Shown: positions 1-17,042 of the stretch, piece after piece
How the letters are laid out: each line of letters begins with the position of its first letter
Numbering within the stretch: position 1 is the first letter of the stretch
From: Flavobacteriales bacterium
GTDB lineage: Bacteria; Bacteroidota; Bacteroidia; Flavobacteriales; ECT2AJA-044
Assembly: GCA_021296215.1 (NCBI GenBank)
Contig: JAGWBA010000005.1
Span: 1 to 56,618 of the forward strand
DNA length: 56,618 nt
Direction of reading: 5' to 3'
Notes under the pieces: generated by a model
Told to the model about the DNA's origin: nothing
Seen by the model: only the letters and a program-made list of their open reading frames with translations
Database searches by the model: none
Made by a program: the position numbers and the translations under genes

Positions 1-22
1 CCCTCATAAAAACGAGTTATAT

Positions 23-352
23 ATGGCTTTTTCAGACAGACTGAGCTTCGCGCGTAAACAGAAAAAAATAAGACAAGCTGACTTAGGAAAGTTGGTTGGA
101 ACGTCTGGAGATATTATCGGGAAGTATGAAAGAGGAGAAAACACGCCCTCGATTGAAGTTGCTGCAAAGATTGCCGAAGCTCTCGGAGTTACGCTTGATT
201 ACTTGGTTAAGGACGGAGAGTATGAGCAAGTAGATAAAGACACCCTCAAAAGACTAAAGGAGATTCAAACGCTTTCCCCTGAAAATAAAAATCATGTATT
301 CGCCCTCTTGAACGCTTTCATTAAGCAAACCAAACTACAGGGTATTATGTAA
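23..352 (+). CDS. XRE-family HTH transcriptional regulator
   Basis: A 109-residue protein with a Cro/C1-type helix-turn-helix at about residues 6-62: RLSFARKQKKIRQADLGKLV, then an IIGKYERGENTPS recognition helix and ALGVTLDYLV. It should bind DNA as a dimer and repress a nearby promoter; the target cannot be read from sequence. The short C-terminal tail (about residues 70-109) is helical and probably dimerises. It points toward the lipoprotein/RHS-tip pair on the other strand and is separated from it by a shared hairpin. It could be a regulator of a prophage, toxin module or stress response. The upstream promoter lies outside the window. The family call is firm; the role is unknown. Confidence 0.85.
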   Translation: MAFSDRLSFARKQKKIRQADLGKLVGTSGDIIGKYERGENTPSIEVAAKIAEALGVTLDYLVKDGEYEQVDKDTLKRLKEIQTLSPENKNHVFALLNAFIKQTKLQGIM

Positions 353-353
353 C

Positions 354-379
354 AAAAAAGCCACTCAATGAGTGGCTTT
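354..379 (-). terminator. Rho-independent terminator of the lipoprotein/RHS-tip pair
   Basis: AAAGCCACT and AGTGGCTTT form a 9-bp stem around a 5-base loop. On the minus strand the stem is followed by a T-run (TTTTTTGTT). It overlaps the stop codon of the minus-strand lipoprotein. It could also weakly terminate the XRE gene from the other side, but the plus-strand flank is less T-rich. Confidence 0.75.
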
Positions 380-742
380 GGATTCCTTACCTAATTGAAT
401 TAATGAGTCTAAAGGTTGTATCTTTTTAGGGTAATAAAGATTAAAAGTTGACGCATCATAATATTGACCAACAAAGCTTTGATAGTAAATGTACGTTTCA
501 CTTTCATAGTCATATGAGGTTTGAAAAACAACCGAGTCTTCACGTTTATTAAACGTATCCGTAACTTCCACTTGGTTCTCTATACCTTTATTATTTGGAA
601 CAGAATCACCCACTAAAGGTTGTTCCCTCGCATCGCCTTTTTTTGTAGTGGATTTTCTTTGAGCATTATCATCACATGAAAAAGTCAGGCCCATTAAAAG
701 CAGTGCCACTACAAAAATTTTAGTTCCCGCCTTCAATGCCAT
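365..742 (-). CDS. Small exported lipoprotein, candidate immunity protein
   Basis: A 125-residue protein with a lysine-bearing N-terminus, a hydrophobic segment and a lipobox (LTFSC, Cys about residue 23), so it should be a lipid-anchored periplasmic or outer-membrane protein. The mature part is hydrophilic and Thr/Lys/Asp-rich, with an aromatic patch (YDYESETYIYYQ). I recognise no family. Its start overlaps the end of the RHS-tip gene by 10 bp, so the two are probably co-translated. A small lipoprotein directly after an RHS toxin-like tip is the expected position for an immunity protein. That role is inference from position only. Confidence 0.6.
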   Translation of the reverse strand: MALKAGTKIFVVALLLMGLTFSCDDNAQRKSTTKKGDAREQPLVGDSVPNNKGIENQVEVTDTFNKREDSVVFQTSYDYESETYIYYQSFVGQYYDASTFNLYYPKKIQPLDSLIQLGKESKATH

Positions 743-1572
743 TCAATGCAATTTCTATTTCTTTCGATTTGTTCGATAATCAAGTTACTATACTGTGAAG
801 CTTGCTCAGGGTTGTTTGTTTTAAAGTCTTCCCATGCTTGAGTTCGCCTTAAGCCATACCATGACATAGCTTGATACCAAACATCAGTATGATAATCAGG
901 GACAGTGCCTCCGCTTTGAATAATTTGATTATCAAACTCCATCATTGCATCCACTAGCATGGTCCTATTATACGATCCCATTTGACTATGGTGTCCTTCT
1001 CCTCCCGATCTATCTAGAATAAAATCTTTATGCCCGGGGTAACCCGTAAAAGTTCCGTTGGTCTGTTTATATCTTTCAAACATTCTGGCATGGTCACCTT
1101 CATGCACCAATGCCATTAACAAAAAAGTCTGATCTATACCAATATCACCTGAAGAGTTTAAGATATCTGAATTTATTACAATTCTATGCATCCCGTACTG
1201 TGATACAGGATTACTTGAAGACAAATGCGATTCAGTTCTTGCCACATTTGTAAAGCCCGAAGGTGAACCACTACTATTTTTTAATTGCCCTAAATGAACG
1301 TAAACGTTATTCTGATTCGCATAAAAGCTTTTCATAACATTTTTCCAAACACTGTTTGAACTTGCTAACTGGGAAAAAGAATTCACTGAAGAATTTGCTT
1401 TTAATTTATTAGTAGGAACTACTTCTCTCCCGTCAGGGTCGACATAAAATATGGGATTATTCATGAAAGCAACATAAGGACTCCATGAAGGGAACTTAGC
1501 TGCTAACGGGCCCACAAGCCAAGACCAAAGATTAAACCTATGATCGAAGTAGCCGATCGACTCATGAATCAC
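733..1572 (-). CDS. Truncated RHS-core protein with HExxH metallopeptidase-like tip
   Basis: This 279-residue protein starts at a GTG directly after an in-frame TGA. Residues about 20-50 (PLAAKFPSWSPYVAFMNNP, then FYVDPDGRE) match the end of the RHS repeat-associated core. The region before it (GYFDHRFNLWSW) is a corrupted version of the usual core sequence. The hundreds to thousands of residues that normally form the RHS shell are absent, so this is the tip of a larger gene. After DPDGRE comes a variable domain with HEGDH at residues 157-161, an HExxH zinc-peptidase signature, and GGEGHHSQM near residues 190-198 as possible further ligands. In RHS proteins this position holds the toxin. No signal peptide is present. 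It overlaps the upstream gene by 11 bp and the downstream lipoprotein by 10 bp. It may be a dead remnant or an orphan toxin. Confidence 0.65.
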   Translation of the reverse strand: MIHESIGYFDHRFNLWSWLVGPLAAKFPSWSPYVAFMNNPIFYVDPDGREVVPTNKLKANSSVNSFSQLASSNSVWKNVMKSFYANQNNVYVHLGQLKNSSGSPSGFTNVARTESHLSSSNPVSQYGMHRIVINSDILNSSGDIGIDQTFLLMALVHEGDHARMFERYKQTNGTFTGYPGHKDFILDRSGGEGHHSQMGSYNRTMLVDAMMEFDNQIIQSGGTVPDYHTDVWYQAMSWYGLRRTQAWEDFKTNNPEQASQYSNLIIEQIERNRNCIEWH

Positions 1573-2353
1573 TCATTGTACGCAGGTATTGAAACAACTG
1601 CGAAAAGGGAATCTCGAAATAGAAGTAATCCATCAGCTCCGCCTTACCATATATGCGCTCACCGCGAATCTGCTGAACATTGCGAACTCCGTCGATATCC
1701 TTGAAAACGCGATGCATCGCGTACAACTGAAAACGAGCGACATTTTGTTCGCCGAAAAGTGAAACGTGGAATTGAAGTTCCCATGGGTAGTTTTCGTGAG
1801 GAACGGCTTTTTTAAGGATTTCTTGAACCCATTGGTCGCGTTTTTTCAGCTTCACGTTTTGTACGAATCCGTGATCGACCAAATGAAGTGAATAAACGAA
1901 GGTGCCAATACTGTCTTGAGCGTGGATCTTGTCGACTTCGCGCTCTTCCATGACGAAATAGTTGAGCTTTGGTTTAACTTCCCACCCGCGCTGCCTTTGA
2001 GGGTAAGCATAAGAATCGTCTTCGGTGGCTTTAACAACGACCAAGTACGGCTTGGTCCCATAGTAAATGCGGAAGATCTCGATAAACGAAATGTTGTCCT
2101 CGCCCAGAGCATGCGTGAGGTCTTCCTTCTTCTTCCCCCATTCGAAGCTCGTGGCACGCAGCGGAAGCGCTCCTGCCATACTATACCACCGAGGGTCCTC
2201 ACCGTAGGTCCAGCCCGTGATATCCTCACCCTCGATACGCGAAAGTACCGTGTCTTCGGCCACCGGGCAGGGTAGACTCTGACGACCTTGAGCCATAAGC
2301 CCTACTGGAGCAATGATCAAAGTCAAAATGATCGTTCGAAAAATCTTCGCCAT
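1562..2353 (-). CDS. Exported protein of unknown function
   Basis: A protein of about 263 residues with an N-terminal signal peptide (MAKIFRTIILTLIIAPVG, cleavage near LMAQG). The ATG at 2353 is preferred over a TTG two codons upstream. The mature part has about equal acidic and basic residues and many aromatics (GWTYGEDPRWY, IYYGTKPYLVVVKA). There is no lipobox, further TM helix or recognised catalytic motif. It should be periplasmic or outer-membrane-associated. It is divergent from the glycosyltransferase operon, with only about 20 bp between the start regions. Its stop codon lies just inside the truncated RHS gene, so a recombination junction may sit at or near its 3' end. Confidence 0.6.
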   Translation of the reverse strand: MAKIFRTIILTLIIAPVGLMAQGRQSLPCPVAEDTVLSRIEGEDITGWTYGEDPRWYSMAGALPLRATSFEWGKKKEDLTHALGEDNISFIEIFRIYYGTKPYLVVVKATEDDSYAYPQRQRGWEVKPKLNYFVMEEREVDKIHAQDSIGTFVYSLHLVDHGFVQNVKLKKRDQWVQEILKKAVPHENYPWELQFHVSLFGEQNVARFQLYAMHRVFKDIDGVRNVQQIRGERIYGKAELMDYFYFEIPFSQLFQYLRTMSDS

Positions 2354-2371
2354 GCTCAAAAATTAGTAAAC

Positions 2372-3280
2372 TTGACGAAAAGTAAAGCAGTTTTGCCCAC
2401 TACACCGCCTAAGGTCGCTATTATAACGGTTAATTTCAACCAAACCCAAGCTACAAAAGAGCTTCTGAACAGTTTGCGACGACATCCGTAAGCGAATATG
2501 GAAGTCTGGGTGGTCGATAATGGCTCTGATCCGGAACCTTCGGACTTAAAGGACGAGTATTCCGAAGTGATGTATCTGCGGACCGATGAAAATCTAGGCT
2601 TCGCCGGAGGTAACCATCTTGCCGTTAGGCAATCAAAAGCCGACTATCTTTTTTTCGTCAACTACGATACAGAAGTCACCGACGGGTTGATCGACCGACT
2701 TGTCCGCGATTTAGAGGAAAATCCCGATTGGGCGGGAGTGAGCCCACGTATTCTGTACCACCATACTCCCGATACATTGCAGTACGCGGGCGCAACGGCG
2801 ATGCACCCGATGAAGATCGGAAACGAATCGATCGGATTTAAGGAAAGGGACCGCGCCGAGTTTCAGGTGGTTCGCAAGACCGAGTTCTTGCATGGAGCCG
2901 CTATGATGATCCGCCAATCGGTGGTCGACGAGGTGGGGCGGATGAACGACGATTACTTTTTGTATTATGAGGAGCACGATTGGTGCGAGCGGATGAAATG
3001 CGCCGGATACCAACTGTTTGTCGATGGTCGTGTGGCCATTTTTCACAAGGAGTCGCTGAGCACGGGAATGGCCAGTCCGCTCAAAACGTATTACCTCACG
3101 CGGAACCGCCGCTTGTGGGCTCGCCGAAACCAACGCGGCTTGATGAAAATCATGTCCGGAGCGTACTTTTATTTTGTGGTCGTTCCAAAGAATTTGCTGA
3201 AATTCACGGTATCGGGCAAGTTGCAGCACATAGTAGCCACTTGGCGCGCCATCGTTTGGAATTTAAGCCATAGAGCATGA
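2372..3280 (+). pseudogene. GT2-family glycosyltransferase interrupted by an in-frame TAA
   Basis: Read through, this is a WbbL-type GT2 transferase of about 300 residues: a nucleotide-sugar-binding start (KVAIITVNFNQTQATKELL), a VVDNGSDPEP loop, an NLGFAGGNH motif, a DxD-type NYDTEV, and a C-terminal FLYYEEHDWCERM acceptor region. A TAA at 2489-2491 splits it between LRRHP and ANMEVWVVDN with no change of frame. A Tyr codon (TAT/TAC) would fit there, so one base change explains it. The downstream part alone lacks the first beta strand and should be inactive. The start is uncertain: TTG at 2372 or 2393 avoids overlap with the divergent gene. It is the first gene of the glycosyltransferase operon and overlaps the next by ATGA. 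Confidence 0.75.
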
Positions 3281-4455
3281 TCATCGTTTATTTTATACTT
3301 ACTGCGCTGTTCATCTACTTGGCCCTCAGTGTATTGTATTTCCATTTCTTTTCGTGGGGCGCCCTTTTCCCACTGCGCGATCGCAAGGTCGCTGAAAAAC
3401 TGTCACGCAAATACGCCGTCCTCATTCCCGGTTATAAAGAAGACGCCGTCATCGTTTCTGTAGCGGAGGCTGCCTTGCGGCAGGATGCGTCCCGCGAGAT
3501 GTTCGACGTGGTGGTGATCGCCGATAGCTTCCAACCCGAAACCCTCGAACGCCTGCGCGAACTCCATGTAAAGGTCGTCGAGGTCTCCTTTGATGTGAGT
3601 ACCAAGTCCAAGGCTCTGAATAAAGCTATGGCTGAACTGGGCGATGACTGCGATGTAGCCGTTGTTCTCGACACCGACAACATCATGGCCGAAGACTTTT
3701 TACTCCGCATGGAACCGCATTTCGATCGCGGCTTTCAGGTGGTTCAAGGGCATCGGGTCGCTAAGAATACCGGCACTCCCATGGCGCAGCTCGATGCTAT
3801 TTCAGAAGAAGTGAACAACAGCGTTTTCCGTAAGGGCCATCGCGTTTTTGGGTTGAGCTCGGTGCTGATCGGATCGGGCATGGCGTTTGACTATGCCTTT
3901 TTCAAAGAGATCATTGGCCGAATCAAGGTTATTGGTGGATTCGATAAAGAACTGGAACTCGAAATGCTGCGCGACCGAATTCAGATCTCCTACGCCATCG
4001 ATGCCTACGTATACGACGAAAAGGTGAGTCGGGCCAAGAGCTTTCAAAACCAGCACCGACATTGGCTTTCTGCTCAATTCATTTACTTTCGACGCTATTT
4101 TGGGTCGGCGGTGCTGCACTTGTTTACGAAAGGGAACCTCGATTTCTTCGATAAAGCCATTCAGATGGCCTTGGTTCCACGTGCCTTGCTGATCGGATTC
4201 GTTGGCCTGTTCGGCGTTTTGGCCTATTTCTTTGAAATCCCGCCCGGATCTGAATGGTGGATATGGCTCCCGGGTATTCTGGTGATTTCGTTCTTGTTTT
4301 CGATTCCCGGAGAATTCTACAATGCCAAAACCCTCAGGGCACTAATATACCTTCCCGTGGGCATACTGAATGTGCTACTTTCGCTGCTCAAGATCCGCGG
4401 AGCCAATAAAAGATTCATTCACACGCCACACGGCGAAGATTCATCCTCGTCATGA
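3277..4455 (+). CDS. Membrane GT2 glycosyltransferase
   Basis: A 392-residue transferase with an N-terminal membrane helix (about residues 2-27), a GT-A core (YAVLIPGYKEDAVI; DVVVIADSF; a DTDN metal-binding motif near residue 140) and two or three hydrophobic segments near residues 300-375. The QNQHRHWLSAQ segment near residue 253 corresponds to the Q/RxxRW-type motif of processive or membrane-bound GT2 enzymes. It should transfer a sugar on the cytoplasmic face during exopolysaccharide, O-antigen or glycolipid synthesis. The donor is not predictable. It overlaps both neighbours by 4 bp (ATGA), so expression is coupled across the operon. Confidence 0.85.
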   Translation: MIIVYFILTALFIYLALSVLYFHFFSWGALFPLRDRKVAEKLSRKYAVLIPGYKEDAVIVSVAEAALRQDASREMFDVVVIADSFQPETLERLRELHVKVVEVSFDVSTKSKALNKAMAELGDDCDVAVVLDTDNIMAEDFLLRMEPHFDRGFQVVQGHRVAKNTGTPMAQLDAISEEVNNSVFRKGHRVFGLSSVLIGSGMAFDYAFFKEIIGRIKVIGGFDKELELEMLRDRIQISYAIDAYVYDEKVSRAKSFQNQHRHWLSAQFIYFRRYFGSAVLHLFTKGNLDFFDKAIQMALVPRALLIGFVGLFGVLAYFFEIPPGSEWWIWLPGILVISFLFSIPGEFYNAKTLRALIYLPVGILNVLLSLLKIRGANKRFIHTPHGEDSSSS

Positions 4456-5579
4456 GAATCGGTATCGAAGCACAGCGCATTTTTAGACCCAAGAAACACG
4501 GGATGGACATGGTGGCGCTTGAGATGATCCGCCAGTTGCAGGTAATCGATAAAGAGAACGAATACTACATTTTCGTGAAGCCCGACGCGGATCGCTGTTG
4601 GGAGCCCAAAGATAATTTTCACCTTGTTGAACTCACGGGTTCATACCCCGTGTGGGAACAGATAAAGCTACCCAAAAGAGCCGCTGAGTTACAGCTCGAT
4701 GTATTGTACTGTACCTCTAACACGGCTCCGGTGCGCTGTAAAGTGCCACTGGTCGTAACTCTACACGATATCATCTACCTCGAAAAGAACAATCTGCTCA
4801 CCAAGGGATTCACCTGGTACCAAAAGCTTGGCAACGTATATCGCAGATGGGTGGTGCCGTCTATCCTGCCGAAGGCAGCAAAGGTCATAACCGTTAGCAA
4901 TTTCGAAAAGCATCGAATTGGGGAGCGGCTGAGGTTGCCTGACGATAAGCTCGTGGCGGTGTACAACGGGGTCGGTGAGCACTTTATGCCGGTACGCGAT
5001 CCGGATGAGCAAGCAAGAGTGCGCGGAAAATATGGTTTGCCCGAGCAATACTTGTTCTTCTTCGGCAATACCGACCCTAAAAAGAATACGCCACGCACGC
5101 TGAGGGCCTATATCGATTACTGTCGACAAACGGAAGATGCCTTGCCCTTGGTAATAGGTGATTACGCGCCTGAGCTGGTGAGATCGCTGCTCAATGAATC
5201 GGGTGCCTCGGACCTCATGAGTAGTTTCGTTTTTCCGGGATATATCCTGAACACCGATATGCCGGCGATTTTGACCATGGCTGAAGTGTTGCTGTATCCG
5301 AGTCTTCGCGAGAGTTTCGGAATTCCGATCCTCGAAGGAATGGCCTGTGAAACGCCGGTGCTGACTTCCAAGGCCGCCAGTATGCCCGAAGTGGCGGGAG
5401 AGGCAGCGCTGCTGGTTGATCCATCGAACCAAGGGGAGATAGCGGAAGGGTTAATGAGGTTGTTGAATGATGGGGCCCTACGTGCCGATTTGGTTGCGAG
5501 GGGAATCGATAGAGCCAAGGAGTTTTTTTGGCGCAATACGGCTCGTTCGGTCCTCGAAATTTACAATGAATTGCGATGA
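4452..5579 (+). CDS. GT4-family glycosyltransferase
   Basis: A 375-residue GT-B enzyme. The N-terminal acceptor domain begins MRIGIEAQRIFRPKKHGMDM. The C-terminal domain has the retaining GT4 signature: FFGNTDPKKNTPRTL near residue 200 and the E-x7-E motif in SLRESFGIPILEGMACETPV. It is cytoplasmic with no TM helix and probably adds a hexose or mannose-like residue to a growing polysaccharide repeat unit. It overlaps both neighbours by 4 bp. It sits between two membrane GT2 enzymes, as expected in a surface-glycan assembly operon. Confidence 0.88.
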   Translation: MRIGIEAQRIFRPKKHGMDMVALEMIRQLQVIDKENEYYIFVKPDADRCWEPKDNFHLVELTGSYPVWEQIKLPKRAAELQLDVLYCTSNTAPVRCKVPLVVTLHDIIYLEKNNLLTKGFTWYQKLGNVYRRWVVPSILPKAAKVITVSNFEKHRIGERLRLPDDKLVAVYNGVGEHFMPVRDPDEQARVRGKYGLPEQYLFFFGNTDPKKNTPRTLRAYIDYCRQTEDALPLVIGDYAPELVRSLLNESGASDLMSSFVFPGYILNTDMPAILTMAEVLLYPSLRESFGIPILEGMACETPVLTSKAASMPEVAGEAALLVDPSNQGEIAEGLMRLLNDGALRADLVARGIDRAKEFFWRNTARSVLEIYNELR

Positions 5580-6748
5580 ATATGTGGGTCACCCTTTTTT
5601 GGATATTGCTGTTTTTAGTATTCTACTCGTATGTGGGATATGCTTTGTTGTTGGGCGTACTCATCAGGCTGGGGTTCAAGCAAAAGGACGATCTCAACGA
5701 TCCCGAAGAGTGGCCTCCGGTAGCCCTTATTGTGCCGTGTTTTAATGAGGCGGGATACATTGAAGAGAAAATCGAGAACTCTTTGGCCTTGGACTACCCC
5801 GGTGATAAGATCGAGTACATTTTCATTTCGGACGGAAGTTCCGATGAAACCCCGGCCATTGTTAAGCGATACGAGGGTAAGGCTGCAGCTATGCACGAAG
5901 ACGCGCGACGTGGTAAAGCGGCAGCTATGAATCGCGCCGTAGGCGCTACAACAGCGGAAATTCTGATCTTTTGCGATGCCAATACAGAGCTCAATGCCGA
6001 AGCGGTGAAAAAGATCGCACGTCACTACAAGAGCCCCAAGATCGGAGGTGTTGCCGGCGTTAAGATCATTAAGCAAAACGAGGCCGAAAGCGCCAGTGGG
6101 GCCGGTGAGGGCATTTATTGGAAGTACGAGTCGACCCTTAAGAAGTGGGATAGTCGTTTTTATACCGTAGTTGGAGCGGCCGGGGAGCTAATGAGCTATC
6201 GCAGGGCGCTCTACGAAGAGCTACCGCAAGACACGATCCTGGATGATTTTATGCAGAGTATGCGGGTATGTGAAAAAGGCTATCGCGTGGTTTACGAGCC
6301 CGAAGCACGTGCGGCGGAATGGGCCTCTGCAAACGTAGAGGAGGAGCTCAAGCGGAAGATCCGAATCGCGGCGGGTGGTTGGCAGAGCGTATTTCGGTTG
6401 AAGCGAGCGGGAAACCCCTTCTTCGATTTTAAACTGTGGTTTCAGTATGTTTCGCACCGAGTGATGCGATGGAGCATTGGGCCGGTGAGCTTTTTCCTGC
6501 TGGTACCCCTGGCGAGTTTTCTTTATTTCTCTGGAACACCGGGATTTAGTTTCTTTTTTTGGGCCATGGTTGGGGTGTATATCGCGATCGCGATCGGACG
6601 TATATTGAACGATCGTAAGACCGAGATCAAGATCTTCTGGGTGCCATATTACTTCTTTGTGATGAACTATGCCGTGGTGATGGGACTGTTCCGCTTTCTT
6701 AAAGGAAACCAATCGAGCCTCTGGGAACGCGCTCAGCGAGCTCGGTAA
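5576..6748 (+). CDS. Membrane GT2 glycosyltransferase, PgaC/cellulose-synthase-like
   Basis: A 390-residue enzyme with an N-terminal TM helix (about residues 3-28), a GT-A domain (PVALIVPCFNEAGYIEEKI; ISDGSSDET; FCDANTE metal site), a TILDDFMQSMRV catalytic-base region, a QxxxxR-like RKIRIAAGGWQSVFRLKR segment and three C-terminal TM helices. This layout is that of processive beta-glycosyltransferases such as poly-GlcNAc or hyaluronan synthases, so it may polymerise as well as transfer. It is the last gene of the four-gene operon. Weak dyad symmetry follows it (TCTC-ATTGC-GAGA near 6773-6785). Confidence 0.87.
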   Translation: MNMWVTLFWILLFLVFYSYVGYALLLGVLIRLGFKQKDDLNDPEEWPPVALIVPCFNEAGYIEEKIENSLALDYPGDKIEYIFISDGSSDETPAIVKRYEGKAAAMHEDARRGKAAAMNRAVGATTAEILIFCDANTELNAEAVKKIARHYKSPKIGGVAGVKIIKQNEAESASGAGEGIYWKYESTLKKWDSRFYTVVGAAGELMSYRRALYEELPQDTILDDFMQSMRVCEKGYRVVYEPEARAAEWASANVEEELKRKIRIAAGGWQSVFRLKRAGNPFFDFKLWFQYVSHRVMRWSIGPVSFFLLVPLASFLYFSGTPGFSFFFWAMVGVYIAIAIGRILNDRKTEIKIFWVPYYFFVMNYAVVMGLFRFLKGNQSSLWERAQRAR

Positions 6749-10329: not shown

Positions 10330-13186
10330 AGCTGTTCGTTTTTTCGGCCGCGGCACGGGTCCATTCGAGCTCCTTTTTAAGGAATTGCCCCGTATAGCTG
10401 TGCTCCATTTCGGCGATCTCTTCCGGAGTTCCTACGCCTAGGATATTTCCACCTTCGGCGCCACCTTCGGGTCCTAGGTCTATGAGGTGATCGGCGACCT
10501 TGATAACATTGAGGTTATGCTCGATCACCAAAACCGTGTTGCCTCTATTCACCAAACGCTGCAATACCTCGAGCAGTACGCGAATATCTTCGAAATGCAA
10601 TCCGGTCGTCGGTTCGTCAAGGATATACAACGTTTGTCCCGTATCGCGCTTACTCAATTCGGTCGCGAGCTTCACGCGCTGTGCCTCACCACCGCTCAAG
10701 GTCGTGCTTTGCTGTCCGAGTTTAACGTAACCTAACCCCACATCGTTCAGGGTCTTGATCTTGTTGTATATCTTCGGAATATTCTTGAAGAACTCGCTCC
10801 CGTCTTCCACGGTCATGTCGAGCACCTCGGCAATGCTTTTTCCCTTGTATCGAACTTCAAGTGTCTCGCGATTGAATCGCTTGCCGTTGCACGTAGGGCA
10901 GGGGACTTGCACATCGGGCAAGAAATTCATTTCGATCACCTGAACTCCGGCACCCCGGCATGTTTCGCAGCGGCCGCCCTTTACATTAAAGCTGAAGCGC
11001 CCCGGCTTGTATCCGCGGATCTTGGCCTCGGGCAAATTGGCGAACAGTGATCGAATATCGCCCCATACATTCGTGTAGGTGGCCGGATTCGAGCGCGGAG
11101 TGCGCCCGATCGGACTTTGGTCTATGTCGATCACCTTATCTATGAGGTCGAGCCCTTCAATGCGCTCGTACTTCATCGGCTTGCTCACAGCGTAGTAGTA
11201 ATGCGCGCTCAGAATGCGGTACAGCGTTTCGTTCACTAGGGTAGACTTCCCACTACCACTTACCCCGGTCACGCAGGTCAATGTGCCAATCGGCAGTTCC
11301 ATATCCACGTTCTTGAGGTTGTTTCCTTTAGCCCCAAAGAGTTTAATCGAAGAGCCATTTCCTTTCCGCCTCTCGGCGGGAAGCGCGATTAGCCGTTGGC
11401 CGTTCAAGTATTCTGCAGTTAGCGTGGGGAGTTTCAGTACTTCAGAAGGAGTGCCCTCGGCAACGATGTGTCCTCCATGTACACCTGCACCCGGACCAAT
11501 ATCGATCACGTGGTCCGCGTGTTCGATCATGTCGCGGTCGTGTTCGGCCACGATGATGCTGTTACCTACGTCGCGCAGATCCTTCAGCGATTTAATCAAC
11601 TTCGCATTATCGCGCTGATGCAGCCCAATACTCGGCTCGTCGAGGATGTACAGAACGCCCACCAATTGTGATCCGATCTGTGTAGCCAAACGAATTCGCT
11701 GAGCTTCACCACCCGACAAGCTTTTACTTCCGCGGTTCAAACTCAAGTAATTCAGTCCTACATCGATTAAAAACCCGAGTCTAGAACGAATCTCTTTCAG
11801 TATTTCTACGGCGATCACGCGCTGGCGTTCGCTAATGCGATCTTCGACTCCTTTGAGCCACACGCCGAGATCACCAATACTCATATTGGCCAATTCGAAG
11901 ATGTTGTGGTGGTCTATGCGGAAGTGCAAGCTCTCCTTGCGAAGTCGAGCCCCTCGACATTCAGGACAGTTCTTCTTCACCATGTAGTCGCCTGCCCAAC
12001 GTCGGAGACTTCTGCTCTTGGCGTTGTTGTGTTGTTGCTCCAGAAAGGGAATGAGGCCGTCGAAATTGATCGAGTAGTTCTTCGTTACTCCAAGAGTTTT
12101 GCTTTTTACTTCAAAGGTTTCTTTGGTGCCATGTAAAATGGCGTTCCAACCATCTTCCGGAATTTCAACCACCGGAGAATTGAGGTCGAAATCGTATCGC
12201 TCACCGATCATTTTGATCTCTCCAAAGATCCAGTTGTTCTTCATTTCGCCAAGTGGGGCAATACCTCCGTTCTTGATCGATTTCTTTGGGTTCGGAGCTA
12301 TCTTATCGCGATCGACCACCGATACTTTTCCGATACCATTGCAGCTCGGGCAAGCACCTTTGGGCGAGTTGAACGAGAAAGTATTGGGTTCCGGGTGGTC
12401 GTAGGCGATGCCGCTGGTCGGGCACATCAACTGTCGCGAGAAATAGCGGATCTGGTCCGTGTTGTGCCGTTGAACCATGAGCATTCCCTTACCCTGCGTC
12501 ATGGCCGTTTCGATGCTCTGCTTGAGGCGCTGGTCACTATCGGCATCAACCTTCAATCGATCGATCACGATCTCGATGTCGTGCGTTTTGTAGCGATCGA
12601 GCTTCATACCCCGCGTTACTTCAACGATCTCACCATCGACTCGAGCTCTAACGAAGCCCTGCTTCAAGATGGTTTCAAAAAGATCGCGGTAATGTCCTTT
12701 CCGCGAGCGAATCACTGGTGAAAGCAGTAGTATTCGTTCGCCGTCGAAATCCTCTTTGATCAGTTGGCGAATTTGCTCGTCGGTATAGCTGACCATTTTT
12801 TCGCCGGAAACGTAACTGTATGCGTCCGCAGCACGGGCATAGAGTAGACGTAAAAAGTCGTATACCTCGGTGATGGTTCCGACGGTTGAGCGAGGATTTT
12901 TACTCGTGGTCTTTTGTTCGATGCTGATCACCGGACTCAAGCCATTTATTTTATCGACATCGGGGCGTTCTAATCCGCCCAGGAATTGTCGTGCATAGGC
13001 AGAGAAGGTTTCGATATAACGACGCTGTCCTTCGGCGTAAATGGTGTCGAAGGCCAGGGAGCTTTTTCCGCTACCACTCAGTCCGGTGATCACCACGAGT
13101 TGGTCGCGCGGGATCGATATATCTATGTTTTTGAGGTTGTGGACGCGGGCGCCCAGCACCTCGAGCTGTTCGTCGTAATTCGTCAT
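10313..13186 (-). CDS. uvrA: Excinuclease ABC subunit UvrA
   Basis: A 957-residue full-length UvrA, the damage-recognising ATPase of nucleotide excision repair. Both ABC modules are complete: Walker [15 protein letters not shown] and [14 protein letters not shown], signatures [12 protein letters not shown] and [12 protein letters not shown], and Walker [12 protein letters not shown] and [11 protein letters not shown]. Zinc-module motifs include CPECRGARL and the CETCRGAG...CPTCNGKRF finger. The first finger reads CPTSG...CPSCNG, so one usual Cys is Ser; I believe this is common in Bacteroidota. It overlaps the MltD-like gene by 4 bp and LOG by 17 bp. This is one of the longest intact genes here and a control for sequence quality. 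Confidence 0.97.
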
Positions 13187-14130
13187 TCCGACTCCTCCTG
13201 TCTGAAGTATAGGCTCGTGTCGACCGGCAATTCGATCGCGTAGGTCAAACCTTCGCGATTAAGCAAAAAACTCTCCCGGAGCCACGGGTTAAAATATTTA
13301 AAAGTCTTGTACGATATGCCCTTTTGCGCAGCGAAGTCGGCCCAGTGCTCAACAGCCGTGTCTACTTCAACGATATAGGTTTCCGGATAGGCGTAGAGGT
13401 CTTTGTCGCGGTAGTGAAAGCCATAGCCTTCGGCATTCTCAAGTACTTCCTTGATGGCCATGATGCGGAACACGTATCGGCTCGCTTCGGGGTTTAAAAG
13501 TAAATTCCAATACGAGTCGACCTTTTGACGTTCGAGCTGGCGCTCCAAGCCATTTTGCCCCATGTTGTAAGATGCAGCAGCCAAAGACCACGTTCCAAAA
13601 CGCTCTTTTGCTTCGAGCAGATACTCGCAGGCTACGCGGGTCGATTTCTCTAGGTTGTAACGCTCGTCGACCTCCCCGTTGATGAGCAGTCCGTGTTCCT
13701 TACCCGTACTTTCGAGTATTTGCCAAAAACCAGTGGCTCCGGCGGGGGAAACGACATTTTGTAATCCACTTTCAGCTACGGCCAAATATTTAAAGTCATC
13801 CGGGACGCCCTTTTCGGCGAGAATTGGTTCGATGATCGGAAAGTACTTATTCGCTCTTTTGATCAACAAAAGGCCATTCGACTGCCAATACGTATTCACC
13901 AATAATTCTCGATCGAGACGTTCGTAGATGTCGGGATCCTCGATCGGTACACGCTCGCCCATAAAGATAGGCGCTTCGGGTAGGCTCAGCGCATATACGT
14001 TGTAGTTCCGATTGAAGTGTTCTTTGAATGTACCATCGTCCGTTTCGATATCACTGCTCGAAAAAATGAACAGCTGAGTCAAAACAAAGGCAATACACAA
14101 TACTCCGGTCGCTTGAAGGATCTTTTTCAT
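13183..14130 (-). CDS. Lytic transglycosylase, MltD-like SLT domain
   Basis: A 315-residue envelope protein with an N-terminal signal or anchor helix (ATGVLCIAFVLTQLFIFSS). The SLT domain is at about residues 105-235: VPDDFKYLAVAESGLQN holds the catalytic Glu, followed by SPAGATGFWQI, ACEYLLEAKERFGTWSLA and AASYNMGQNGL. It should cleave peptidoglycan glycan strands to 1,6-anhydro ends. No LysM repeats are visible, so it is shorter than E. coli MltD. The gene overlaps rfbC and uvrA by 4 bp each. Confidence 0.87.
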   Translation of the reverse strand: MKKILQATGVLCIAFVLTQLFIFSSSDIETDDGTFKEHFNRNYNVYALSLPEAPIFMGERVPIEDPDIYERLDRELLVNTYWQSNGLLLIKRANKYFPIIEPILAEKGVPDDFKYLAVAESGLQNVVSPAGATGFWQILESTGKEHGLLINGEVDERYNLEKSTRVACEYLLEAKERFGTWSLAAASYNMGQNGLERQLERQKVDSYWNLLLNPEASRYVFRIMAIKEVLENAEGYGFHYRDKDLYAYPETYIVEVDTAVEHWADFAAQKGISYKTFKYFNPWLRESFLLNREGLTYAIELPVDTSLYFRQEESE

Positions 14131-14675
14131 ATGCTGAACGGGCTGTCGAAGTCTTTTAAAAAGGAGGCGATTTCGTCTTTTTCACTCAGAACAGGATTCT
14201 CAATATCCCAGTTGATGTGAATATCTGGATCGCTCCAACGGATAGCGTCCTCACTTTGTTTGTTGTAATAGTCCGTGCACTTGTAGGAGAAGATGGTATT
14301 GTCTTCCAGGGTGAGGAATCCATGTGCAAAACCAGGTGGAATCCAAAACTGATTTTGAAGTTCTTCATCGAGGATCTCAGCGTGGTATTGGCCGTAGGTC
14401 GGAGAGCCTTTGCGTATATCTACCGCGACGTCGAGTACTGAACCTTTGATCACGCGAACGAGTTTTCCTTGAGCGTGAGGTGGTTTTTGAAAATGCAGGC
14501 CGCGCAGTACCCCTCTTTGCGAGAGGCTTTGGTTATCTTGCACGAAAGGGCCTTCAATACCGGCCTCTTTATAGCGTTCTTCAGAAAAACTTTCCAGGAA
14601 ATAGCCGCGTTCATCGCGGAAAACTCGGGGGGTAATGACCAACAGGCCATCTATATGGGAGGGCGCGATTTTCAT
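14127..14675 (-). CDS. rfbC: dTDP-4-dehydrorhamnose 3,5-epimerase
   Basis: A 182-residue cupin-fold epimerase of the dTDP-L-rhamnose pathway. Motifs are FRDERGYFLESFSE, VQDNQSLSQRGVLRGLHFQ (catalytic His), KGSVLDVAVDIRKGSPTYG, PPGFAHGFLTLED and YKCTDYYN. The start MKIAPSHIDG at 14675 gives the normal family length; an upstream in-frame start adds 15 residues with no family similarity. No rfbA, rfbB or rfbD is in the window, so the rest of the pathway must be elsewhere. It appears to lead the five-gene operon. Confidence 0.93.
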   Translation of the reverse strand: MKIAPSHIDGLLVITPRVFRDERGYFLESFSEERYKEAGIEGPFVQDNQSLSQRGVLRGLHFQKPPHAQGKLVRVIKGSVLDVAVDIRKGSPTYGQYHAEILDEELQNQFWIPPGFAHGFLTLEDNTIFSYKCTDYYNKQSEDAIRWSDPDIHINWDIENPVLSEKDEIASFLKDFDSPFSI

Positions 14676-14746
14676 AAGACGCGAAGGTACGAATATTCTT
14701 GGCCAATTTAATGAAAACAATACCTCCGCTCGCTTGTAATTAGAGT

Positions 14747-15418
14747 ATGGTTCAAGTCAGTGTTTTGGGTGCCACAGGGCTCGTTGGTCGTCATTTAATG
14801 AACGAACTAGTCGCAAATCCGGCCATAGGCCGAATTCAAGTTTGGTCGCGCCGTCCGGTTCATTTCGATAGCGACAAGGTCGAGGTCGTGGTAGCCGATT
14901 TGTATGAAATTCAGCAGCACGACACCTCGTTTTTACCCGATGGTGTTTTCTGCTGTATTGGAACTACCAATGCCAAGGCACCTGACGAGGAAACCTACAG
15001 GGCCATCGATTACGGTATTCCCGTTTCGGCGGCCTGTAAGGCACGGCGAGAAGGGGTAGAGGCCTTTGCCGTGATTTCGAGTATTGGCGCTAATGCCACT
15101 GCGCAGCCCTTTTATTTGCGCACGAAGGGGCAGATGGAGCTTGACGTGCTCAAGCACGGTCCAAGGCGCAAATGGGCTTTGAGACCGAGTTTTTTATTGG
15201 GCGAGCGGAGTGAAAAACGCCTAGGAGAAAGCATCGGTAAGTTCTTTATCCGGCTCTTTGGGCCGCTGCTCTTCGGTTCTTGGAAGAAATATCGAGGAAT
15301 CCATGCCCGTGAAGTGGCCAAGGCCATGATCACCTTGGTCATGGATCCGCGCGATCAATACGTATGGGAGAGCAACGAGATCAAAGACCTCGCAGCACTT
15401 TATCCTTCGGATAACTGA
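14747..15418 (+). CDS. NAD(P)H-binding SDR-like protein
   Basis: A 223-residue atypical short-chain dehydrogenase. The N-terminus has the Rossmann glycine motif VSVLGATGLVGRHL and WSRRPV, which suggests NADP. FCCIGTTNAKAPDEETYRAI and VISSIGANATAQPFYLRTKG resemble the HTATIP2/YwnB-type family, with Ser in SSIGAN and Tyr in FYLRTKG in catalytic-like positions. The substrate is unknown. It is transcribed divergently from rfbC, and its last 38 bp overlap the end of the convergent MuiA-like gene. Confidence 0.8.
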   Translation: MVQVSVLGATGLVGRHLMNELVANPAIGRIQVWSRRPVHFDSDKVEVVVADLYEIQQHDTSFLPDGVFCCIGTTNAKAPDEETYRAIDYGIPVSAACKARREGVEAFAVISSIGANATAQPFYLRTKGQMELDVLKHGPRRKWALRPSFLLGERSEKRLGESIGKFFIRLFGPLLFGSWKKYRGIHAREVAKAMITLVMDPRDQYVWESNEIKDLAALYPSDN

Positions 15419-17042
15419 CCTCGAAACCGCACTCAAACTCCTCTTTGGCTCTCGGTCCCAAGTCAAACTTCCATTCGATCATTCCATCCGTTTCGGTATA
15501 ACTACCGTCTCGACATTCTAACCGCTCGACCTCGAGTCCGTCTTGAAGCGACAAGGGCATGTGGTCTTGTATATAGAGTTCGACAGCAGTGCTTTTGAAG
15601 TTTTCGACAATGTAGCGGTATACGCGCTCTTGTTTTACTCGCTTACCGATGATGGAGTTTTTTGACTTGGTCAAAACGAGCTCTCGCGTTACACTGAGGC
15701 CTTCGTCAATTCCCATGCTGAGCTCCAAGGTATCGGCAAACATGTTCTTGTTCATCTGCAATTGACCTAAGAACGTGTTTTGGTAGTATAGTTTAGCTTT
15801 AGCGTTGGGCAGCATATACTCTTGCCAGTCGGCAAATCGAGCTTGTACGAAAACCGCATTATAGAGCTTAGGTACTGCTACTAATCTATAGTCACAATCG
15901 AGCTCAGCCCTTTCGAGTTTCACACGAAGGGGGTAGGCCGATCCGCTTTTGATCGAGAATTTACGATCGAACGAAAAGAGCTTGAAGGCAAGTTGCTCTA
16001 CCCGGGTAACTTGAGCTACGTCATACGACGCTACGGTTAGTTCTTTGGGCGCTTCTTCAACGGAATCGATCCCGGCTTCGGCTTTGTACACTTGTACAGA
16101 TTCAAGAACACCGGCATTTCTGGTTTGTGCACGCTCGACCAAGCTCAGGATCCAAGGTTGCAGATAAGGCTTGTTTCGATGACTCGTCGGATTGCTCGTC
16201 GAAACGAGTAAGTCGACGTTGTCCCAATTTTTACCCGTGTTTTGATATACCTGTGCTCTCTGTTGTATCTCCATGGGTTCTCCATATCCATTCGAGCGGA
16301 ATTCGATCTCTGGTGTCCAACCGGCTGAGTTTACGAGGTAGGTAAATTCAATATTTCCAGAACCTGCCCGGTCTGCTTCCACGGCCAAAACGAGTCGGTA
16401 ATCGTAGTACGCACTCTTGACCGGATACCGGTCTTGAAAATCCTGCCGCAAGGCAGCGATCCTTTGCTGAAGGTGTTGGCGTGTTTCGTTGTAGCCCTCT
16501 TGTTCGCGACTGTGATCGACCAGAGCATCGTTCACTTCGTTGAGGCGTTGACGGAGGTAGGCGACTGCATCTTGCAACAATTGCAGCGAGTCGGCGATGG
16601 CGGTTCCCTGATTGATGGGATTGTTTAAGAGTAGGCGCTTTTCATTGTTGAGTACTTCGAGACGGAAGGCGAGGTTCTTGGACCAGTATTGCATGTCGCT
16701 TAAACTGTCTTCGGCCGCTTTTATTTTGCGTTGGAGCGCACGTGCCGTTGCATCGTTAGGCTCTTCGTTTTTCGGTTGTTTGGTGCGCGTTTCGTAGCGA
16801 TAGCTCAGCAGTGTAAAGTCGCCGGTTCCGGTGAGCACGATACTTCCGGCATTGATACCCGGTTCGAGATCGTGGAGAATGATCTCTTGAATCCCGGAAT
16901 TATAGTTGATATCGGCCGAGCGATTTACTTGTGCGCCGCTCAGAAAAAAGGTGACTTCCTCGACCTTGGAGCTGACTTCACCTTCGGCGAAGGCAGTAAT
17001 AGAAAACAGCGCCGCGAGTACCAATACGAATAGCTTTTTCAT
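15381..17042 (-). CDS. MuiA-family protein (DUF4140-DUF4139)
   Basis: A 553-residue exported protein with a cleavable signal peptide (MKKLFVLVLAALFSITAFAE). Next come a DUF4140-like N-terminal domain (VEEVTFFLSGAQVNRSADI), a long helical coiled-coil stretch at about residues 100-205, and a DUF4139 beta-rich domain to the end (AGWTPEIEFRSNGYGEPMEI; YRYIVENFKSTAVELYIQDH). The family is called mucoidy inhibitor A for historical reasons and its biochemical role is not settled. It follows the alpha/beta hydrolase by 35 bp and is last in its operon. Confidence 0.85.
   Translation of the reverse strand: MKKLFVLVLAALFSITAFAEGEVSSKVEEVTFFLSGAQVNRSADINYNSGIQEIILHDLEPGINAGSIVLTGTGDFTLLSYRYETRTKQPKNEEPNDATARALQRKIKAAEDSLSDMQYWSKNLAFRLEVLNNEKRLLLNNPINQGTAIADSLQLLQDAVAYLRQRLNEVNDALVDHSREQEGYNETRQHLQQRIAALRQDFQDRYPVKSAYYDYRLVLAVEADRAGSGNIEFTYLVNSAGWTPEIEFRSNGYGEPMEIQQRAQVYQNTGKNWDNVDLLVSTSNPTSHRNKPYLQPWILSLVERAQTRNAGVLESVQVYKAEAGIDSVEEAPKELTVASYDVAQVTRVEQLAFKLFSFDRKFSIKSGSAYPLRVKLERAELDCDYRLVAVPKLYNAVFVQARFADWQEYMLPNAKAKLYYQNTFLGQLQMNKNMFADTLELSMGIDEGLSVTRELVLTKSKNSIIGKRVKQERVYRYIVENFKSTAVELYIQDHMPLSLQDGLEVERLECRDGSYTETDGMIEWKFDLGPRAKEEFECGFEVSYPKDKVLRGL

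What the first reader, a model, noticed from the sequence alone, without database searches (positions are those of the whole stretch)
365..1572. Orphan RHS tip with an HExxH peptidase motif and an overlapping lipoprotein
The RHS core end (PLAAKFPSW...DPDGRE) leads into a variable domain with HEGDH and GGEGHH, the place where RHS proteins carry toxins. The shell-forming part is gone and the core remnant is corrupted. A lipoprotein overlaps by 10 bp in the position of an immunity gene, which would suit a periplasm-acting peptidase. Either this is a remnant kept for its immunity gene, or the tip has become an independent protein.
Basis: partly seen in the sequence, partly recalled or inferred. 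Interest (0 to 1): 0.55.

Follow-up and report, generated by a model that had tools for sequence, protein, structure and literature searches.

The report
Orphan RHS peptidase toxin with immunity
A detached tip of a bacterial competition toxin, very probably a zinc peptidase, sits with its likely exported protector protein at the start of a broken gene, and it belongs to a toxin family that recurs across Bacteroidota.

Summary
In detail: ORF 733-1572(-) with HEGDH at residues 157-161, and a lipoprotein ORF 365-742(-) overlapping it by 10 bp. One close relative was found (Bacteroidales UBA6192, 73% identity), with the same tip joined to a longer RHS core and followed by the same lipoprotein. One correction: the "corrupted core" is not RHS. 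The first ~20 residues are the first 18 codons of another gene, read out of frame; in the sister genome that gene follows the upstream neighbour. RHS sequence starts at residue ~22. The tip belongs to a family found in 28 of 395 Bacteroidota genomes, with HExxH and a third His invariant in 22 of 22 aligned members. Its profile matches human Spartan's SprT domain (E 4.4e-5). In 23 of 23 family ORFs tested the next ORF has a signal-peptide-like start. Best reading: an orphan RHS toxin-immunity cassette with an envelope-acting SprT-like peptidase, probably a silent reservoir or kept for immunity. Orphan cassettes are known; members of this tip family match no curated model above cut-off. Both structure models were poor.

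The parts
365..742 (-). Putative immunity lipoprotein, 125 aa, lipobox-like LTFSC; overlaps the tip stop by 10 bp
   Evidence: same protein (46% identity) follows the same tip in L005; signal-peptide score 3.11 by my hydropathy rule
733..1422 (-). Toxin tip domain, residues 51-279: HExxH metallopeptidase-like, SprT-like family
1090..1104 (-). HEGDH motif (residues 157-161), predicted zinc-binding and catalytic
   Evidence: H, E, H invariant in 22 of 22 aligned family members; role inferred
988..990 (-). His195 (second His of GGEGHH), predicted third zinc ligand
   Evidence: invariant in 22 of 22 aligned members (position 146); ligand role inferred
1423..1509 (-). End of the RHS core (PLAAKFPSW...DPDGRE), 29 codons
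   Evidence: aligns to RHS-type cores of Bacteroidota
1503..1565 (-). First 18 codons (to about 1512) of a gene that in G001 encodes a 482-aa protein (O-antigen-ligase-like by recall), cut at the junction and then stopped by TAG
   Evidence: no match for that protein in this genome
1562..2359 (-). Upstream gene, whole frame, counterpart in G001 (64% identity)
23..352 (+). HTH regulator of RstR family, convergent to the cassette, next to the contig end
   Evidence: NF041951, 93.5 bits, cut-off 80

Best explanation
An orphan RHS toxin-immunity cassette. A fragment with the last ~29 codons of an RHS core, a zinc-peptidase tip of the SprT/Wss1-like kind and its lipoprotein immunity gene was placed at codon ~18 of another gene (probably a polysaccharide gene). 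When carried by a complete RHS protein (or, in relatives, by a surface lipoprotein), the tip would be delivered into a rival's envelope and cleave proteins there; the lipoprotein, exported to the periplasm side, would bind and block it in kin cells. Here the tip has no shell, no export signal and no evident start of its own, and is out of frame with the interrupted gene, so it is most likely not made or made poorly. The immunity gene has its own start codon and probably gives protection, and the tip is a reservoir for recombination into a full RHS gene. Shown: the pairing, the family, the junction in this assembly, the conserved residues. Inferred: peptidase activity, envelope target, silence of the tip, expression of the lipoprotein.
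For: Same tip-lipoprotein pair behind an RHS core in L005. pN/pS against L005 is 0.16 for the tip and 0.55 for the lipoprotein, both frames open. HE..H, a third H, Y, W, L invariant in 22 of 22. Profile hits Spartan structures 6mdw (4.4e-5) and 6mdx (1.1e-4), the only two distinct sequences at E <= 0.01. SprT-like hits in 11 of 22 members at E <= 0.05. Next ORF with signal-peptide-like start in 23 of 23, against 41 of 115 size-matched and 19 of 59 longer other ORFs, many of which may not be genes. No YD-repeat match in this genome; RHS core matches only on contigs C103 and C84. Four further tip-type ORFs in the same genome, each followed by an ORF with a signal peptide by eye. Precedents: orphan cdiA-CT modules mostly lack translation starts while their immunity genes can be expressed, and rhs loci hold like modules (PMC3150448, passages); recombination of an orphan tip into the main rhs gene (PMC3967940, abstract); a periplasmic HExxH toxin with a signal-peptide immunity protein, VgrG2b/PA0261 (PMC6899460, passages).
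Against: Structure models failed (pLDDT 51 and 43) and Foldseek on the first found nothing at E <= 0.001, so the zinc site is not seen in three dimensions. The window tip alone hits no Pfam or NCBIfam model. The family profile against E. coli SprT is weak (E 0.0031, probability 10%; controls BepA 0.054, HtpX 0.098, EndA 0.8), and the two-sequence profile A3 misses the motif. Single members also hit other models weakly: Peptidase_M91 0.0015 (one), flagellinolysin 0.02 (three). SprT's third His (recalled) lies nearer to HExxH than the family's. The genome is a draft: the RHS piece of C103 and a tip ORF of C84 run to contig ends, so a full shell gene may be unassembled. In-frame GTG codons exist upstream of the tip, so translation is not excluded. 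Activity, binding and expression are untested.
Confidence: 0.7

Rival explanations
1. The tip has become an independent gene, translated by coupling to the upstream gene or to the short interrupted ORF (GTG at 1572 or 1515), and works as a cytoplasmic or released protein.
For: The ORF is open from 1572 and overlaps the upstream stop; the interrupted ORF stops at 1503, close to an in-frame GTG (sequence); tip conserved.
Against: The first ~20 residues are out-of-frame sequence of another gene; no export signal; the partner looks like an exported lipoprotein, which would not protect a cytoplasmic site.
Confidence: 0.13
2. A recent, decaying leftover without function for either gene.
For: No shell and no evident start; low G+C (0.35-0.37 against 0.496 for the window), which suggests recent arrival.
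Against: No stop or frameshift in either gene; predicted active-site residues intact; low pN/pS, though most of that divergence may predate the detachment.
Confidence: 0.15
3. The junction at 1512 is an assembly or binning error and the cassette belongs to another genome or place.
For: MAG-like draft contig; cassette lies at the contig end; G+C differs; two proteins that lie beyond the junction in the sister genome have no match here (no positive control in those calls).
Against: Shared bases at the junction are about 4 (read from the sequence), too few for a usual k-mer join; RHS tips of the same style lie on two other contigs.
Confidence: 0.08
4. The HExxH is not catalytic; the tip is a binding or pore domain.
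For: No reliable fold; the window sequence has a 5-residue shift just before the motif in the alignment.
Against: HE..H plus a third His invariant in 22 of 22 members, 20 of them at 12-26% identity to the window tip.
Confidence: 0.06

Closest known systems
Orphan rhs-CT/rhsI and cdiA-CT/cdiI modules of enterobacteria (PMC3150448, passages seen)
   Same: Detached tip with the end of the core, followed by an immunity gene with its own start; arrays occur (C84 here)
   Different: Found in a Bacteroidota draft genome; no main rhs gene seen beside it; the tip interrupts an unrelated gene; the immunity gene looks like an exported lipoprotein
Tox-MPTase1-5 toxin domains (PMC3482391, passages seen)
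   Same: HExxH toxin tips of RHS proteins, described there as distantly related to Wss1-like peptidases
   Different: No Tox-MPTase model appears among the families hit by the 22 members at E <= 0.05; which of the five have a model there was not checked; that paper's table gives no immunity protein for them
SprT-like family, Pfam PF10263, with human Spartan 6mdw and E. coli SprT (annotated YggI; equation recalled)
   Same: Profile similarity over the strand and the HExxHA helix
   Different: Toxin context; third conserved His further away (SprT's recalled); extra C-terminal Y..AW.GL part; hits below the cut-off
VgrG2b C-terminal domain with PA0261 (PMC6899460, passages seen)
   Same: HExxH toxin acting in the periplasm, countered by a signal-peptide immunity protein
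   Different: That one is a thermolysin-like gluzincin with a Glu third ligand on a VgrG; no sequence relation was tested

Membership tests
RHS polymorphic toxin | RHS-associated core at the tip boundary (TIGR03696, DPxG) | tested here: met
   Window core end aligns to Bacteroidota RHS-type cores, YVDPDGRE present; the model itself is hit in relative L005 (2.2e-22), not in the window ORF, which holds only 29 core codons
RHS polymorphic toxin | YD-repeat shell and N-terminal delivery part | tested here: not met
   absent from the ORF; no YD-repeat match in the genome at E <= 0.001. Hence 'orphan tip', not a complete RHS protein
Orphan rhs-CT/rhsI module | Tip detached from the shell, with an adjacent immunity-type gene | tested here: met
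Orphan rhs-CT/rhsI module | No translation start for the tip | tested here: inconclusive
   the apparent start lies in another gene's sequence, but in-frame GTG codons at 1572 and 1515 could serve
Orphan rhs-CT/rhsI module | Specific neutralisation of the tip by the immunity protein | not testable with these tools
   needs expression tests
SprT-like (PF10263) | Score at or above the gathering cut-off | tested here: not met
   window tip no hit; best member 25.2 bits against 25.6
SprT-like (PF10263) | HExxH with a third His ligand | tested here: inconclusive
   three His and the Glu invariant in 22 of 22; geometry not modelled
Tox-MPTase1-5 | Match to the family models | tested here: inconclusive
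   no Tox-MPTase among the families listed for 22 members at E <= 0.05 in Pfam-A (10 families) or NCBIfam (4); it was not checked which of the five have a model there

The most novel reading that the evidence does not exclude
An uncatalogued family of SprT/Spartan-like peptidase toxins of Bacteroidota that moves between three kinds of carrier (RHS proteins, surface lipoproteins with interchangeable tips, prophage-borne lipoproteins), each time with an exported immunity protein, so that the fold of a DNA-protein crosslink protease serves as an envelope weapon.
Probability: 0.5. Interest if true: 0.55.

Novelty: new member of a known kind. Interest (0 to 1): 0.42.

Why it matters
It ties an unnamed RHS tip to a toxin family in 28 of 395 sampled Bacteroidota genomes whose exported-looking partners (23 of 23) point to the envelope as the site of action. 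It also points to a class of lipoprotein-borne polymorphic toxins in this phylum: in one genome five related lipoprotein N-termini bear C-termini that BLASTP does not relate to each other. And it shows how an orphan cassette can interrupt an unrelated gene.

Tried and rejected
Plasmid and phage collections with the window tip: no match. With lipoprotein carriers, L074's in plasmids and L067's in phages: no match. Viral contigs: none with the tip, A1 (30), A6 (93), A7 (94), L065 (95); one contig with A4 (57), found again. PDB by sequence with the tip alone: none; with A1: two hits at E 0.75 and 0.98, not used. Two AlphaFold jobs, with 2 and 3 sequences, were too poor; Foldseek on the first gave no hit at E <= 0.001, so the second was not searched. 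Bacteroidota-type promoter patterns (recalled) in 1-2400: two hits, both on the plus strand, none for the two minus-strand genes.

'Corrupted core remnant' rejected. DNA alone was weak for this: 30 of 54 bases match, and one other place reaches 29; the protein comparison (52 against 30) and the expected position decide it. Biopython's dN/dS gave a saturated dS or math errors for the tip and the upstream gene, and dN 0.445, dS 1.693 for the lipoprotein; pN/pS was then computed by a script of mine.

Rows dropped: A2 holds 22 of 26 family members; L076, L066:1817, L075:5250 and L066:7521 were left out as short or partial. Of the 28 genomes, 19 were looked at locus by locus (own genome, 16, G086 and G195); nine weaker ones (G055, G167, G197, G227, G302, G306, G392, G418, G422) were not. 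The 23 ORFs include four from L066 and three from L075, so they are not all independent; the window, L019, L027 and L080 partners were outside that count.

Full report
What is there. The window is the whole of contig C5 of a draft genome of 2.53 Mb in 135 contigs, 97% complete. On the minus strand, ORF 733-1572 (279 aa) carries HEGDH at residues 157-161 and GGEGHH at 190-195. ORF 365-742 (125 aa) starts inside its end, with a 10-bp overlap and a lipobox-like start. Neither the tip nor the upstream ORF hits Pfam at E <= 5; the lipoprotein has only hits below the cut-off.

The pair recurs. The scan of genome contigs found one relative: L005, a contig of Bacteroidales bacterium UBA6192, 73% identical over residues 8-277. 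There the tip follows 149 residues that include an RHS core (TIGR03696, E 2.2e-22), and the next ORF is the same lipoprotein, 46% identical. A second cassette with the same core and another tip lies just downstream. Between the two genomes pN/pS is 0.16 for the tip and 0.55 for the lipoprotein, and tip and lipoprotein are poor in G+C in both (0.33-0.37).

The N-terminus is not a corrupted core. In the sister genome G001 (same genus, one contig) the gene upstream has a counterpart at 64% identity, and the next gene overlaps its stop by ATGA and encodes a 482-aa protein starting MSRTISTSVGILFGLVVW. I call it O-antigen-ligase-like from recall; no family search was made. In the window, ATG at 1565 overlaps the upstream stop in the same way and reads MSRSATSIIGLIFGLGLWAR*. 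Of 113,130 positions in six frames this is the best match to the 18 residues (score 52, next 30). The 482-aa protein and a 658-aa Wzc-like one (label also from recall) that lies further on in G001 gave no match in this genome (those calls had no positive control), so the end of that gene cluster is missing, replaced or unassembled. No YD-repeat match was found in this genome or in G001; in the L005 genome there were two. RHS core matches in this genome lie on contigs C103 and C84, both with tips at contig ends; G001 has none.

The tip family. The tip alone finds matches in 4 of 395 genomes, its own included. An alignment with those and L005 (A1) finds 28 of 395 genomes at E <= 0.001; four of the 28 supplied rows of the model. 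A profile of 24 members without the window and L005 copies finds the window tip at 1.5e-16, with 2000 shuffles at 0.065 or worse; part of the 24 came from the search with the window in the profile. In 22 aligned members H, E, H of HExxH, one later His, a Tyr, a Trp and a Leu are invariant. The 22-member profile hits two distinct sequences of the PDB at E <= 0.01, both Spartan (4.4e-5, 1.1e-4), and 11 of 22 members hit Pfam SprT-like at E <= 0.05, best 1.6e-5 and just under the cut-off; single members also hit Peptidase_M91 (0.0015) and other models weakly. Against E. coli proteins the profile gives SprT/YggI 0.0031 (probability only 10%), BepA 0.054, HtpX 0.098, EndA 0.8: a preference, not proof. 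AlphaFold with 2 or 3 sequences failed (mean pLDDT 51 and 43). So 'zinc peptidase' rests on conserved residues and profile similarity, not on a model.

Carriers and partners. Among the family ORFs read here, I saw an RHS core only at the window and L005 copies; the others were not scanned for it one by one. Several others are C-terminal parts of proteins with a signal-peptide-like start by the rule, followed by a Cys by eye (L067, L069, L070, L071, L074, L079; L066:5131 also passes the rule but its stretch starts at residue 24 and I leave it out); L027 and L080 look the same by eye. Some are short orphan frames. A search with the N-terminus of the L069 carrier matched 2 of 14 genomes; in one of them, G259, five proteins share this N-terminus (all 10 pairs E 1e-19 or better), while none of the 10 pairs of C-termini gives a BLASTP match below E 0.1. 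Two of the five look JAB-like by eye and may be distant kin. This is the mark of polymorphic toxins. One copy lies on viral contig IMGVR_UViG_3300030393_000017, next to a 1436-aa ORF that I take for a tape measure protein (label from recall). In 23 of 23 family ORFs the next ORF has a signal-peptide-like start by a simple hydropathy rule of mine; the same rule passes 41 of 115 other ORFs of 100-210 aa and 19 of 59 longer ones in those loci, many of which may not be genes. This points to action in the envelope. A Cys near the C-terminus is nearly invariant (C226), and many members have a second Cys near the start of the domain, which would suit an oxidising place; the window tip keeps the last one and L005 neither.

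How it would work. Delivered by a full RHS protein or a lipoprotein carrier, the tip would cut envelope proteins of a neighbour, and the exported lipoprotein would block it in kin. The known case that works alike is VgrG2b/PA0261, where an HExxH domain is toxic in the periplasm and not in the cytoplasm of E. coli, and the immunity protein needs its signal peptide (PMC6899460, passages). In the window the tip lacks carrier and evident start, as most orphan cdiA-CT modules of enterobacteria lack starts, while immunity genes there can be expressed (PMC3150448, passages), and an orphan Rhs tip can be recombined into a main rhs gene (PMC3967940, abstract). I think reservoir and immunity the likeliest role, at 0.7; an independent protein 0.13; a dead leftover 0.15; an assembly error 0.08; a non-peptidase 0.06 (these overlap).

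Known or new. Orphan RHS cassettes are known, and HExxH RHS tips are known as Tox-MPTase1-5 (PMC3482391, passages). No Tox-MPTase model is among the families hit by this family, and no listed title or abstract-start names it in three searches of the held library (listings only). I therefore file the locus as an orphan rhs-CT/immunity module with a tip of a new family of a known kind, SprT-like in resemblance but below that family's cut-off.

Noticed in passing
L062 (G000 C84) 11215-15463: Array of three tip-type ORFs, each followed by an ORF with a signal peptide by eye: one with HEARH at the contig end (14987-15463), one with an RHS core end (13644-14366) and a lipase-like one (11868-12452, SA1320 family E 2e-14). 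The A1 profile does not hit the HEARH tip.
   Followed up: partly
L061 (G000 C103) 1-6507: RHS tip and lipoprotein at the contig start, followed by an HTH regulator (30% identical to the window's 23-352), a DnaG-like primase and XerC/D-type recombinase ORFs: looks like a mobile element with a tip cassette.
   Followed up: partly
L005 2072-5303: Two RHS core-tip cassettes in tandem, 85% identical in the core, with repeated upstream sequence and a repeated gene fragment nearby, as if one segment was duplicated and then got another tip.
   Followed up: no
L099, L101, L102, L104, L105 (G259): One kind of surface-lipoprotein N-terminus with five C-termini not related by BLASTP (two look JAB-like by eye). 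Downstream ORFs were listed for three of the five, two of them with signal-peptide-like starts by eye.
   Followed up: partly
L080 4116-6175: Lipoprotein toxin of this family plus partner ORF on a viral contig, on the strand opposite to neighbouring ORFs that look like phage structural genes (labels from recall).
   Followed up: partly
L066 (G287 C45): Four members of the family, each with a following exported-type ORF (two of these partners are alike), on one 8.5-kb contig; one member (1817-2218) lacks the HExxH part.
   Followed up: no
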